From contig PUOC01000033.1 of assembly GCA_003551965.1 (NCBI GenBank), positions 1 to 37,713 of the forward strand: a stretch of DNA of 37,713 nucleotides, in the 5' to 3' direction. Below the pieces are notes generated by a model. The model did not search any database and was not told the DNA's origin. It worked only from the letters and a program-made list of their open reading frames with translations. Numbering within the stretch: position 1 is the first letter of the stretch; the number at the start of each line of letters is the position of its first letter. Positions 3,841-10,794 of the stretch are shown here, in pieces. The position numbers were made by a program, and so were the translations under genes. The stretch comes from Clostridiales bacterium (GTDB taxonomy: Bacteria; Bacillota; Limnochordia; Darwinibacteriales; B1SED10-159).

Positions 3841-3952
3841 CCTCTTCTCATCTCTCCGGGATTGCGCTCCCAGCAGGAATTGGCACCTTGCAGCAGTGCT
3901 GCCGGTTGCCGGGCTTCATCGGGCCAGTCCCTCCACCTCTCTGGATAAGAAG
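3841..3952 (-). ncRNA. SAM-I (S-box) riboswitch controlling metNIQ
   Basis: Read on the minus strand, the element holds the conserved SAM-I landmarks in order: CTTCTTATC opening P1 (3952-3944), CAGAGAGGTGGAGGGACTGG, then CCCGATGAAGCCCGGCAACC, AAGGTGCCAATTCC, and a closing GATGAGAAG (3852-3844). P1 pairs over nine positions with one G-U pair. SAM binding stabilises P1 and should let the downstream terminator form. Without SAM, the 3' strand of P1 with its AGG extension can pair with the 5' arm of the terminator and allow read-through. This places methionine uptake under direct SAM feedback. Confidence 0.97.
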
Positions 3953-6900: not shown

Positions 6901-8559
6901 GTGGCAGCAGACGATCACAGAGGATATACAGAATATGCGCTGGTACGGACCGTTCATTGGAGACGATTTCCCCCTGCGGCCCGCCACTGGCACGCCTGTT
7001 CTCCTCCGATGCCCTTGGATGAAGCTGAACGACGGCTGCAGGCGTATCGTAAGAAAAGCAACCCCGTGCTTGCCGGTGTTATCGGACTGCGTTGGCTGTT
7101 TGATCGCCAGCATCGGACGGCACTGCCAAGGGCGTCCGACGGACATACACGGCAGCTGGAGGTCCTGGCCGCAGATATCGCCGGCCATCTTGAGGGCCGC
7201 AAGCTGCTTCACTGGCAGATTGCCGCCGAGGTCCGCCGGCGCGGCCTTTGGCCGGCCGATGTGGAAGCAGCCATCGACTACGGCGGCTGGATTCAACTAT
7301 GGCAGTGTAGGGCCGGGGTCGGCGGCAGTATTCGAGAAGAAGCGCAGTGCCGCCGCTGCGGCAGTTACGATATTGCCTTGTTTCCCTGCAGCGCCTGCGG
7401 CCGCAGTGATTGTCCGGTGTGTTTGTGCTGCCAAACGTTGGGAATGGTGCGGGGGTGTACTCCCCTGCTGCAACTGCAAAGCGGTGAGGCAGGCCAATCC
7501 TGTAGGCCGGTCCGGCTGCAGCTGGAATTCCGGTTAACGTCCGCCCAGGCAGCGGCGTCTAGGTTTTTGACGGAATGGCTGTGCGGCAATCAACCGCTGG
7601 CGGTGGTTTGGGCAGCCTGTGGGGCAGGAAAGACCGAAACGGTTTTCGCAGCCATGCAGCGGGTGCTGATGCAAGGAGGGCAGGTACTCTTCGCTATTCC
7701 CCGCCGTGATGTGGTGGCAGAGATGGAGGCAAGACTGCGCAAAGCCTTTCCCGATGTTCCTTTGGCTGTACTCTACGGCGGCCGCAAGGACAGTTGTGAC
7801 GTACCCTTGATCGCGGCCACCACCCATCAGGTGCTGCGTTTTCATCGCCGTTTTGACTTGGTTGTATTGGATGAAGTGGATGCATTTCCCTACCATGGCA
7901 GCGAGATGCTCCGGTATGGGATGGACCAGGCGGTCAAGGAAGGAGGGAAGCGGATTGAAATGACAGCCACTCCCATTTCCTGGCCCGTGCGTGTCCCCAG
8001 TGTTACCATTCCGGCGAGGCACCATGGCTATGCCCTTCCCGAGCCGGTACTGATCCGTTGGAACCAATCGCTGTCTAGCGGGCCGCCTTGGCGGTTGCCC
8101 CCGTCGCTGGTCGGCATCATGCGGGACTCCCGTGATCCTTGGATTCTGTTCTGCCCGACGAGGAAAACATGCGAATCGGTGGCCGCGTGGTTCCAGGACT
8201 GCATGGGCATTCGTACGGAATTCTGCCATTCCCAATCCCAGGGACGCGAAGGGCTTCTGGAAAGGTTAAAGACCGGTCAGCTGAAGTATGCAGCGGCGAC
8301 GTCGGTACTGGAACGGGGGATCACCGTTCCCGGTGTACAGGTTGTGGTTTTGTGGGCCGACCATGATGTCTTCTCGGCCCGCTCCTTGGTGCAGATGGCC
8401 GGGCGGGTTGGACGGACCGCAGCAAAACCCAAAGGCATGGTGTGGTTTGCGGCCAAAGGCTGGAGCGGATCCATGCGCGAGGCTAAAAGAAGAATCCAGT
8501 TCCTAAATTCGCAGGCAGCGGAGCAGGGATTGCTCACGGGAGGAGAGCTGCAGTGTTAG
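6901..8559 (+). CDS. comFA: ComFA-like late competence DNA helicase
   Basis: ComFA is a cytoplasmic ATPase thought to pull transforming DNA inward. From the GTG at 6901 the protein has 552 residues. It has a zinc-binding cysteine cluster (CRRC at 150-153, CSAC at 163-166, CPVCLCC at 171-177) and superfamily 2 helicase motifs: Walker A AACGAGKT (238-245), DEVD (324-327), TATP (355-358) and QMAGRVGR (498-505). The start is uncertain. The frame is open back to 6715, but the promoter at 6829-6857 places the first transcribed base near 6864. The only strong ribosome site, AAAAGGAG at 6864-6871, precedes ATG codons in the next frame. The GTG at 6901 is the first in-frame start on the predicted message and has a poor ribosome site. 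comFC overlaps its end by seven bases. Confidence 0.88.
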   Translation: MAADDHRGYTEYALVRTVHWRRFPPAARHWHACSPPMPLDEAERRLQAYRKKSNPVLAGVIGLRWLFDRQHRTALPRASDGHTRQLEVLAADIAGHLEGRKLLHWQIAAEVRRRGLWPADVEAAIDYGGWIQLWQCRAGVGGSIREEAQCRRCGSYDIALFPCSACGRSDCPVCLCCQTLGMVRGCTPLLQLQSGEAGQSCRPVRLQLEFRLTSAQAAASRFLTEWLCGNQPLAVVWAACGAGKTETVFAAMQRVLMQGGQVLFAIPRRDVVAEMEARLRKAFPDVPLAVLYGGRKDSCDVPLIAATTHQVLRFHRRFDLVVLDEVDAFPYHGSEMLRYGMDQAVKEGGKRIEMTATPISWPVRVPSVTIPARHHGYALPEPVLIRWNQSLSSGPPWRLPPSLVGIMRDSRDPWILFCPTRKTCESVAAWFQDCMGIRTEFCHSQSQGREGLLERLKTGQLKYAAATSVLERGITVPGVQVVVLWADHDVFSARSLVQMAGRVGRTAAKPKGMVWFAAKGWSGSMREAKRRIQFLNSQAAEQGLLTGGELQC

Positions 8560-9215
8560 AGAAAGTGATACCTTGGATCGAAGCATGGGAAGGGCTCTTT
8601 ATGCCGTCGCCTCGGTATTGTCCTCTCTGTCAGCAAAAACCGGTGGACATAGGGCTTCCCGGATGTTGGCCCTGTGTGTCGCGCTTAGAAATAGGCTGGC
8701 ACCGCATTCCTGGGGACGATCTCTGTTTCTGCATCGGTCCGTACCAGGGTCAAGTCAAGGAACGGATTGTGGATTTCAAATTCCTCAACCGCATGGATAT
8801 TGGATGGCTGCTGGGTTCGCTGATGGGCATTGCTGCCCGCGAAGAACCCCTTCTGCAGGATATCCGGGCTATTGTACCCATACCCTTACACCCTGCCCGG
8901 GAAAAGCAGCGGGGATTCAACCAAACCCGGATCCTTGCCGATGGTATAAGTAACTGGTGGAAGAAACCCATTCTGGACTTGCTGGTACGGCCGAAGGAAA
9001 CAAAGCCCCAGGTGGACTTAAATCGCCACCAGCGGGCGCTGAACCTGGCCAATGCTTTTGCCATGAGAGAAGGGGATCGCATGCGCCATCAGGAAGTGCT
9101 TCTTATTGACGACATTTGCACAACCGGGACCACTTTTGCGGCTGCGGCGTCGGTCGTACGAAGGTATGGAGGTAAGCCGACGGGCTTGTTTGTTGCCAGC
9201 GGCCGTATTGAATAG
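8553..9215 (+). CDS. comFC: ComFC-like phosphoribosyltransferase-family competence protein
   Basis: The 220-residue protein has the ComFC/GntX layout: an N-terminal four-cysteine zinc site (Cys23, Cys26, Cys38, Cys41) and a phosphoribosyltransferase fold. The fold shows the family motif KQRGFNQ at 118-124 and the PRPP-loop VLLIDDICTTGTT at 182-194. In transformable bacteria ComFC works with ComFA in DNA uptake, and the reaction it may catalyse is not established. The GTG start at 8553 lies inside the last codons of comFA (TGTTAG), with GGAGGAGAG upstream, giving a seven-base overlap and translational coupling. A 380-base gene-free region with strong secondary structure follows. Confidence 0.93.
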   Translation: MLEKVIPWIEAWEGLFMPSPRYCPLCQQKPVDIGLPGCWPCVSRLEIGWHRIPGDDLCFCIGPYQGQVKERIVDFKFLNRMDIGWLLGSLMGIAAREEPLLQDIRAIVPIPLHPAREKQRGFNQTRILADGISNWWKKPILDLLVRPKETKPQVDLNRHQRALNLANAFAMREGDRMRHQEVLLIDDICTTGTTFAAAASVVRRYGGKPTGLFVASGRIE

Positions 9216-9223
9216 TTCGGTGA

Positions 9224-9526
9224 GGTCATGGACCCCACGGACAAAGCCGGGGGCTTGTGGTGAAAGCCAGACACAAGCCTGCTATGACCAGCCCGAGCCT
9301 TCATTGGCTGCGTTATCTTAGTCATGATGCGTTCTGGGTGCTTCTCCAGCCCGTTTCGCTGTCGTCTAGCATTAAACAGCAAGCTGGGGTGTTTGCAAGC
9401 AGTGTGCTAGGCATGACAAGCTAAGATAGCATTGGCGAGGAGAGATGCCCCTATTGGGTCGCGTTACAAGCCCCATACGGGGTACTGGCAGGGGTTGCCG
9501 TTATCGGTGGTAACACCTGCCGCCAA
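9224..9526 (+). ncRNA. Candidate structured non-coding RNA between comFC and yvyF (raiA-like position)
   Basis: No credible gene occupies 9216-9596, yet the stretch holds many perfect nested stems. Domain 1: GGTCAT (9224-9229) with ATGACC (9284-9289), enclosing GGCTTGTG (9252-9259) with CACAAGCC (9272-9279). Domain 2: TATCTTAG (9314-9321) with CTAAGATA (9421-9428), then TCATG (9322-9326) with CATGA (9412-9416), CTAGCA (9366-9371) with TGCTAG (9405-9410) and AAACA (9374-9378) with TGTTT (9390-9394). Domain 3: TTGGCG (9432-9437) with CGCCAA (9521-9526), holding CCCCATACGGGG (9471-9482) and GGCAGG (9487-9492) with CCTGCC (9516-9521, sharing one base with the outer stem). Its place after comFC, in a cluster that also contains hpf, recalls raiA-motif RNA of Firmicutes. 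That identity is inference; I could not match a consensus. The plus strand is assumed from the flanking genes. No clear promoter was seen, so it may be processed from the comF transcript. Confidence 0.6.
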
Positions 9527-9578
9527 AAAATAAAACGGTTTCCTCCCCATAGCAAAAGCGAGGGGCATCCAACCGTTT
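9527..9578 (-). terminator. Terminator-like hairpin facing the minus strand, upstream of yvyF
   Basis: AAACGGTT (9533-9540) pairs with AACCGTTT (9571-9578), with CCCC (9545-9548) facing GGGG (9562-9565) inside. On the minus strand the stem is followed by TTATTTTTT, the form of an intrinsic terminator. On the plus strand it is followed by GGAAAG and sits just before the yvyF ribosome site. No minus-strand gene lies nearby, so it would stop antisense transcription, or serve the plus strand only as a leader hairpin. Confidence 0.55.
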
Positions 9579-9596
9579 GGAAAGTGGTGAAGTGAG

Positions 9597-9998
9597 ATGC
9601 TGAAAAATTGTGCGGAGTGCGGAAAGGTCTTCTCCCATCCTACGCAGACGCTTTGTGCTGCCTGCCAGCATGAACAAGCGGAAGACTTTGCCAAGGTCAA
9701 GAAATATATTGAAAAGAGGCCGAAAGCGCCCCTCATGGAAGTCGCAGACGAGACCGAAGTTTCTATAGAGACTATCTACGAATATATTCGCAAGGGACGT
9801 TTACAGGTTGTTCCGCCCGATGTTGTACTAGAATGCGAGATCTGCGGGAAAAATATAGAACGGGGCAAGTTATGCCACGCCTGTCGCACGAAGCTGAAGC
9901 CTGATCCACAGCCGCAGCCCCAGCCCCAGGACGAAGAAACCACGCAGACAGGACGAATGCACATATTGAACAAAATGCGCAATCGGCGTGGAAATTGA
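9597..9998 (+). CDS. yvyF: YvyF-like flagellar operon protein
   Basis: The 133-residue protein matches the small flagellar-operon YvyF family. It has two four-cysteine zinc sites: Cys5/Cys8 with Cys20/Cys23, and Cys80/Cys83 with Cys93/Cys96. Between them, a helix-turn-helix-like segment at about 46-70 (LMEVADETEVSIETIYEYIR) resembles excisionase/MerR-type DNA readers. A PQ-rich linker (104-111) and a basic tail (121-132) follow. The molecular role is unknown; a regulatory role is suggested only by the fold and by its constant place before flgM. The ATG at 9597 has a weak ribosome site (GAAGTGAG nearby). The sigma-28 promoter of flgM lies immediately after its stop. Confidence 0.85.
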   Translation: MLKNCAECGKVFSHPTQTLCAACQHEQAEDFAKVKKYIEKRPKAPLMEVADETEVSIETIYEYIRKGRLQVVPPDVVLECEICGKNIERGKLCHACRTKLKPDPQPQPQPQDEETTQTGRMHILNKMRNRRGN

Positions 9999-10000
9999 AC

Positions 10001-10028
10001 TAAAGCTTCCGCAGAAGGGTACCGATAA
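10001..10028 (+). promoter_or_regulatory. Sigma-28 (FliA/SigD)-type promoter before flgM
   Basis: TAAA (10001-10004) is followed after 16 bases by ACCGATAA (10021-10028), against the consensus TAAA-N15-GCCGATAA. The expected start point near 10035 leaves a short leader with GAGGGGG as ribosome site. In enteric bacteria and Bacillus flgM is also served by a sigma-28 promoter. Confidence 0.75.
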
Positions 10029-10051
10029 TACTGATAGAGGGGGAGATGTGG

Positions 10052-10333
10052 GTGTATAACATCACCAATAAGCCCATTGGACACATTGCCCGGGTATACC
10101 AGGATCAGAACCGAGTAAAACCGAACGAAGCGGCTAAATCCACAGCACCGGCCAGTGGCGACAAAGTGACTTTGTCTGCTACGGGTCGCGAAATCAACGC
10201 ACTGATGAAAAAAGTCGAGAATACACCGGATATTCGACCGGAAGCGGAATCCATAAAACAGGCTGTCAAGTCCGGCCGGTACGATGTCTCCGGAGAGGAG
10301 ATTGCTTCTTCCATTCTTAAGACCTTAGAGTAG
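10052..10333 (+). CDS. flgM: FlgM anti-sigma-28 factor
   Basis: The roughly 93-residue protein has the FlgM pattern. The N-terminal half is disordered and polar. The C-terminal half holds helices that clamp sigma-28: REINALMKKVENTPDIRPE, then IKQAVKSGRYDVSGEEIASS, the diagnostic I-x-x-G-x-Y-x-V/I stretch. It keeps sigma-28 inactive until the hook-basal body is finished and FlgM is exported. The GTG at 10052 is preferred because the ribosome site GAGGGGG ends eight bases upstream; the in-frame ATG at 10046 sits too close to it. flgN follows after eight bases. Regulation by the sigma-28 promoter just upstream would give negative feedback. Confidence 0.92.
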   Translation: MYNITNKPIGHIARVYQDQNRVKPNEAAKSTAPASGDKVTLSATGREINALMKKVENTPDIRPEAESIKQAVKSGRYDVSGEEIASSILKTLE

Positions 10334-10341
10334 GTGGTTGT

Positions 10342-10794
10342 ATGCAAGCCCATGAAGCCTTACTAGAAGTGCTTCATCATGAGCTGGAGATCTTGGACGA
10401 GCTGATCAGACTAGGACGGGACAAAGGCGACAACATCCATGATGAGAAAAAGGTGGCGGCTGTTGCAGTCCAAGAGGAAAAAGCTCTGCAGCGCCTGCAA
10501 AAGGCGGAGGCCGATAGGCAGGCGCTCTTTGACGTTGTGGCAACGGGCAGAAGTTTCAGCCAGTGGCTGCATGACCAGGGGCCAGTCCAGGATTCCCTGC
10601 GCCCGGCCTGGCAGCAGCTGCAGGAACGATTTCTGGTCTTACAGGATCTGAATGACATCAATATGCAGTTGGTGGAGGAATCTTTGGCCTATATTCAGTT
10701 TTCATTGAACCTCTTGACTACGCAGGGGCCAACAACCTACGGGCGCAGAGGCCAGTGCGGGACGACACAGTCAATCTTCAACCGAAAGGTGTAG
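10342..10794 (+). CDS. flgN: FlgN-family flagellar export chaperone
   Basis: The 150-residue, mostly helical protein fits FlgN (YvyG in Bacillus), which holds the hook-filament junction proteins FlgK and FlgL for export. It has a heptad-like N-terminal helix (LLEVLHHELEILDELIRLGR) and the family-type QEEKALQRLQKAE at about 48-60. The C-terminal helix DLNDINMQLVEESLAYIQFSLNLL matches the conserved 'N-x-x-L-x-x-x-S-L-x-Y' region. The last 25 residues are polar and unassigned. The ATG at 10342 has TAGGTGGT upstream, and flgK begins four bases after its stop. The identification relies on position plus this weakly conserved pattern. Confidence 0.88.
   Translation: MQAHEALLEVLHHELEILDELIRLGRDKGDNIHDEKKVAAVAVQEEKALQRLQKAEADRQALFDVVATGRSFSQWLHDQGPVQDSLRPAWQQLQERFLVLQDLNDINMQLVEESLAYIQFSLNLLTTQGPTTYGRRGQCGTTQSIFNRKV

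What the first reader, a model, noticed from the sequence alone, without database searches (positions are those of the whole stretch)
9224..9526. A large structured RNA candidate fills the gap between comFC and the flagellar operon
Three domains of perfect nested stems (8-bp GGCTTGTG/CACAAGCC; 8-bp TATCTTAG/CTAAGATA enclosing TCATG/CATGA and CTAGCA/TGCTAG; TTGGCG/CGCCAA enclosing two hairpins) sit in about 300 bases with no gene. It does not match SAM, c-di-GMP, cobalamin, T-box, tmRNA, SRP, 6S or RNase P signatures as I know them. raiA-motif RNAs of Firmicutes and Actinobacteria occur near raiA(hpf)/comFC genes, and this locus has both. It could be a divergent raiA RNA separated from hpf by the flagellar block, or a new RNA.
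Basis: partly seen in the sequence, partly recalled or inferred. Interest (0 to 1): 0.72.

Follow-up and report, generated by a model that had tools for sequence, protein, structure and literature searches.

The report
Stand-alone OMEGA guide RNA in mobile element
The folded RNA between a competence gene and the flagellar genes is a known type of guide RNA (the kind used by IscB/IsrB, relatives of the ancestor of Cas9), carried by a small 362-base jumping element without any protein gene that landed just in front of a flagellar gene.

Summary
The structured RNA is real, but it is not raiA and not a new class. Window 9225-9450 matches Rfam RF02033 (HEARO) over the full model at 110.5 bits (gathering score 83). 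HEARO is the omega-RNA scaffold of the RNA-guided nucleases IscB/IsrB. It lies in a 362-bp mobile element (9225-9586) with no protein gene and a DNA hairpin near its right end. The element is followed directly by host GTGA, matching the published IsrB target-adjacent motif (NTGA). Five more copies of the same subfamily (91-96% identical over the RNA) sit elsewhere in the genome, each with a different left flank (the guide); all right ends read are followed by GTGA. Two same-family genomes have only 22-23 bp between comFC and yvyF, so this is an insertion. Copies covary strongly on the HEARO structure. No intact IscB/IsrB was found in the draft genome, only an IscB C-terminal piece at a contig end. 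Most likely this is a non-autonomous omega-RNA element whose guide acts in trans with IscB/IsrB to re-cut and restore the excised donor site. Stand-alone omega-RNAs are already known. Less expected: copies often sit in Shine-Dalgarno regions and bring a replacement one.

The parts
8553..9215 (+). comFC (ComF family), upstream gene; its 3' end supplies part of the guide
   Evidence: TIGR00201 E 6.3e-25
9205..9224 (+). Presumed 20-nt guide: host sequence directly 5' of the RNA scaffold, different in every copy
   Evidence: Left flanks of copies unrelated up to GTCAT; 20-nt 5' guide of IsrB omega-RNA in PMC9581776
9225..9450 (+). omega-RNA scaffold, HEARO RF02033, full-length match
   Evidence: 110.5 bits, gathering 83; covariation
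9225..9586 (+). Whole non-autonomous element, 362 bp, no protein gene assigned
   Evidence: Shared ends among copies; no insert at this place in two relatives
9533..9578 (.). Imperfect DNA hairpin near the right end (AAACGGTT...AACCGTTT)
   Evidence: DNA folding, sequence shared by copies
9587..9590 (+). GTGA: target-adjacent motif / insertion tetranucleotide next to the right end
   Evidence: GTGA follows the right end in all copies where it is readable; IsrB motif NTGA in PMC9581776
9597..9998 (+). yvyF (flagellar region protein), start codon 10 nt after the G of GTGA
   Evidence: TIGR03826 E 3.2e-33

Best explanation
This is a non-autonomous IS200/IS605-like (ISC-type) element of 362 bp whose only recognisable cargo is an omega-RNA (HEARO) gene. 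Shown: the RNA family, the repeated copies, the sharp ends, the fixed GTGA on the right, the variable left flank, the absence of an insert in relatives and the absence of a recognisable protein gene. Inferred: read-through transcription of the comFC operon yields an omega-RNA whose 5' guide is the 3' end of comFC and the yvyF leader. An IscB/IsrB protein encoded elsewhere binds it in trans. When a single-strand tyrosine transposase excises the element, the rejoined site (guide followed by GTGA) becomes the exact target of this RNA. The nuclease nicks or cuts it, and repair from the sister copy restores the element. The occupied site should not be cut, because there the guide is followed by GTCA instead of NTGA.
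For: Rfam HEARO full-length. 12 HEARO matches in the genome, five others at 91-96% identity. Common ends, variable left flank, GTGA on the right. comFC-yvyF gap of 22-23 bp in two relatives. 20 pairs with two-sided changes against 7.7 +/- 1.7 in shuffles and 3-5 in slid controls. IsrB motif NTGA, 20-nt guide, and reported stand-alone omega-RNAs working with IscB (PMC9581776). Retention by cutting the excision junction, described for TnpB (PMC11870625). IscB C-terminal piece at a contig end in the own genome; HEARO followed directly by an IscB N-terminus in a same-class genome.
Against: No intact IscB/IsrB found in the assembly. No expression data. No promoter-like site nearby. The transposase that moves the element is not identified; the Y1 enzymes found are an intact one closest to REP-associated transposases and a broken one.
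Confidence: 0.8

Rival explanations
1. The same mobile element, but a passive relic: a MITE-like element moved by a transposase, whose omega-RNA no longer has a partner nuclease and does nothing. The fold persists because the copies are recent.
For: No intact nuclease gene in the assembly; broken nuclease remnants in relative G002.
Against: Two-sided changes that keep pairs between subfamilies suggest selection on the RNA fold, at least in the past. The nuclease may be missing because repeats break the assembly; an IscB C-terminus runs off a contig end.
Confidence: 0.17
2. A domesticated guide RNA that regulates the flagellar operon, in analogy to TldR RNA-guided repressors of flagellin.
For: Location in front of flagellar genes only.
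Against: Not present at this place in either same-family genome. Other copies of the element stand before unrelated genes such as rnfC-, lon- and pepF-like genes. The guide seed plus motif has no second site in the genome above the reversed-pattern control.
Confidence: 0.02
3. A divergent raiA RNA or a new RNA class.
For: Proximity to comFC and hpf; strong fold.
Against: Full-length HEARO match and no raiA match at E up to 10; repeated and not present at the same place in relatives.
Confidence: 0.01

Closest known systems
HEARO RNA (Rfam RF02033), the omega-RNA of IscB/IsrB
   Same: Full-length covariance-model match, same fold, variable 5' guide, NTGA-type motif at the other end
   Different: No iscB/isrB gene follows it; the scaffold is followed by 136 bp of element right end
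Stand-alone omega-RNAs that function with IscB (Altae-Tran et al. 2021, cited in PMC9581776)
   Same: omega-RNA without an adjacent nuclease gene
   Different: Here the whole element with both ends, the insertion site and several copies can be read; trans activity is not shown
Non-autonomous IS200/IS605 elements (MITE/PATE-like)
   Same: Short, no protein gene, subterminal hairpin, insertion next to a fixed tetranucleotide, no target duplication seen
   Different: Carries a complete guide-RNA scaffold; the cognate transposase was not identified

Membership tests
HEARO / omega-RNA (RF02033) | Covariance-model score above the curated threshold | tested here: met
   110.5 bits against 83, model positions 1-211 of 211
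HEARO / omega-RNA (RF02033) | Consensus base pairs kept and covarying | tested here: met
   58 of 65 pairs canonical in the window; 20 pairs with two-sided changes among 11 copies, 3-5 in slid controls
HEARO / omega-RNA (RF02033) | Variable guide directly 5' of the scaffold, taken from flanking DNA | tested here: met
   Left flanks of copies unrelated up to the common GTCAT
HEARO / omega-RNA (RF02033) | Target-adjacent motif NTGA at the far end of the element | tested here: met
   GTGA after every right end read; motif from PMC9581776
HEARO / omega-RNA (RF02033) | iscB/isrB gene directly downstream (usual but not universal; stand-alone forms are reported) | tested here: not met
   yvyF follows; no nuclease gene in the element
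HEARO / omega-RNA (RF02033) | Expressed RNA that guides a nuclease | not testable with these tools
   Needs RNA sequencing and biochemistry
Non-autonomous IS200/IS605-type element | Repeated with sharp ends next to a fixed tetranucleotide, no target duplication | tested here: met
   the comparison with relatives is indirect, as no exact empty allele of the same species was available
Non-autonomous IS200/IS605-type element | Subterminal DNA hairpin | tested here: met
   AAACGGTT/AACCGTTT hairpin at 9533-9578; the fold of the 140-nt end is moderately better than shuffles (z = -1.91, 8 of 200 shuffles as good)
Non-autonomous IS200/IS605-type element | A Y1 transposase in the genome able to move it | tested here: inconclusive
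   One intact Y1 enzyme closest to REP-associated transposases and one broken one; no link to these ends shown
raiA RNA | Match to the Rfam raiA model | tested here: not met
   No raiA match at E up to 10 over 9100-9700
TldR-like domesticated guide RNA | Conserved position and a guide matching a regulated promoter | tested here: not met
   Not present at this place in both relatives; no second seed site above chance

The most novel reading that the evidence does not exclude
A family of protein-less omega-RNA elements that insert preferentially inside Shine-Dalgarno regions of operon genes at GTGA, use the host operon transcript as the source of their guide RNA, and carry a replacement Shine-Dalgarno sequence at their right end (GGAAAGTG|GTGA), so that the downstream gene stays translated.
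Probability: 0.3. Interest if true: 0.5.

Novelty: new member of a known kind. Interest (0 to 1): 0.3.

Why it matters
It removes a false lead (raiA or a new RNA class) and gives a clean case of guide-RNA-only OMEGA elements: ends, several copies, the insertion site and the guide can all be read from sequence. If the Shine-Dalgarno pattern holds in more genomes, it would explain how such elements spread in dense operons with little harm and are transcribed without a promoter of their own.

Tried and rejected
raiA and other Rfam families: no match. A protein gene in the gap: none recognised. The element in plasmid or phage records: no match. A second genomic target of the guide seed: no excess over the reversed-pattern control. 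A loop-to-tail pseudoknot as in IsrB omega-RNA: a 6-bp match exists in the window (TTCTCC with GGAGAG) and similar ones in some relatives, but the comparison was not controlled and several diverged copies lack it. RNAalifold on the MAFFT alignment recovers only part of the HEARO fold; several copies are cut at contig ends. In one search the window's right end was set four bases short (9582 instead of 9586), so the window's pairing energies there are ignored; the other copies are unaffected. Laying the whole genome in the Python box was not available.

Full report
Observation. The + strand of 9190-9560 folds at -149.9 kcal/mol against -129.4 +/- 5.3 for shuffles (z = -3.87, none of 100 as good); the opposite strand is ordinary.

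Identity. cmscan against all 4227 Rfam families gives two matches in the window: a SAM riboswitch at 3845-3951 (-) and HEARO (RF02033) at 9225-9450 (+), 110.5 bits, gathering score 83, full-length. At E up to 10 over 9100-9700 nothing else of note appears and raiA is absent. HEARO is the omega-RNA of IscB-type nucleases (PMC9755519). In the window 58 of 65 consensus pairs are canonical.

It is a repeat. The genome (3.87 Mb, 329 contigs) holds 12 HEARO matches, seven over the gathering score. L001, L002, L003, L007 and L008 are 91-96% identical to the window copy over the RNA; L005, L006, L009, L010 and L012 form more diverged groups at about 76%. Copies with a left end share the first bases (GTCAT...) while the sequence to the left is unrelated in each. 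On the right, L001, L002, L007 and the window copy end ...CCAACCGTTTGGAAAGTG and then read GTGA. The diverged copies L006 and L011/L112 end ...CGAG and then read GTGA. The partial copies L113 and L111 also run into GTGA. The window element is therefore 9225-9586, 362 bp, followed by GTGA at 9587-9590. Its right part contains an imperfect hairpin (AAACGGTT/AACCGTTT) in the DNA fold.

It is an insertion. In both other genomes of the same family, ComFC (47-50% identical) is followed by yvyF after 23 and 22 bp that contain a Shine-Dalgarno sequence. In the window the gap is 381 bp; without the element it would be 19 bp: TTCGGTGAG|GTGAAGTGAG. No duplication is seen, although an exact empty allele of the same species was not available.

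Structure. On a MAFFT alignment of 11 copies, not fitted to structure, the HEARO consensus keeps 86.9% of cells paired. Twenty pairs show two-sided changes, against 7.7 +/- 1.7 in shuffles and 3-5 in slid versions. Relatedness inflates such counts against shuffles, but the slid control shares that relatedness.

Partner protein. PF14239 finds nothing in the own genome; that search had no positive among its 14 controls, but the same model does find pieces in relative G002. NF040563 finds an IscB C-terminal segment running off the end of contig C12 (153 aa; E 1.3e-7) and a weak hit in an HNH region of C103. Relative G002 has short or broken RRXRR pieces. In a member of the same class, G049, a HEARO is followed at once by an IscB N-terminus (L118; E 2.9e-46). 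Several HEARO copies of the own genome stop at contig ends, so a full iscB/isrB element may be missing from the assembly. An intact Y1 transposase closest to REP-associated enzymes (C91) and a broken one (C308) exist.

Mechanism. IsrB uses a roughly 300-nt RNA with a 20-nt 5' guide and the motif NTGA; stand-alone omega-RNAs that work with IscB have been reported (PMC9581776). For TnpB, the excision junction joins the motif and the guide match, giving a target whose cutting restores the element (PMC11870625). The same logic fits here: the guide (9205-9224) followed by GTGA exists only after excision, whereas in the occupied site the guide is followed by GTCA; the seed plus motif has no other site in the genome above chance. 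Trans action and transcription by read-through are inferred. No sigma-70-like promoter was seen in 8500-10400.

Placement. All eight right ends read are followed by an open frame in the same direction whose possible start lies 0-32 nt away. With the start codons I judge most likely, six of eight lie 7-10 nt after the G of GTGA. In the window 4 of 229 GTGA sites (4 of 44 non-coding ones) lie 7-11 nt before a start, which gives p of about 1e-5 against non-coding sites. This rests on choosing TTG or GTG starts for three genes and on a baseline that includes the element's own site at 9587; with ATG starts alone it is three of eight, which is only suggestive. The right end supplies Shine-Dalgarno-like sequence next to GTGA: L001, L002, L006 and L007 pair with the anti-Shine-Dalgarno at -9.0 to -11.8 kcal/mol when occupied, against -4.3 to -16.1 for the rejoined sites; random sequence carrying GTGA averages -7.6. 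This side pattern is the less expected part and needs a wider count.

Verdict. A standard HEARO/omega-RNA in a non-autonomous mobile element: a new member of a known kind. The raiA and new-RNA readings are rejected.

Noticed in passing
window 3845-3951 (-): SAM riboswitch (RF00162, 94.1 bits) in front of a MetN-like ABC transporter gene on the minus strand; ordinary.
   Followed up: no
right ends of L001, L002, L004, L006, L007, L111, L112, L113: Element copies tend to end directly before GTGA within or near the Shine-Dalgarno region of a co-directional gene, and the right end brings its own Shine-Dalgarno-like sequence.
   Followed up: partly
L114 (own genome contig C12, last about 460 bases): IscB C-terminal fragment of 153 aa running off the contig end, with an RNA-guided nuclease profile match over its first 36 residues; the rest is not in the assembly.
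   Followed up: partly
G037 loci L120, L123, L125-L130: A genome of the same class with eight weak HEARO matches, several followed by broken IscB-like reading frames, as if an OMEGA family were decaying there.
   Followed up: no
G049 L124 and G052 L121: Weak HEARO matches without a nuclease gene lying in front of long open frames that look like aminoacyl-tRNA synthetase genes.
   Followed up: no
own genome C308:36118-36419 (L013, L015): A Y1 transposase gene split between two matches, one with stop codons inside, so apparently broken.
   Followed up: no
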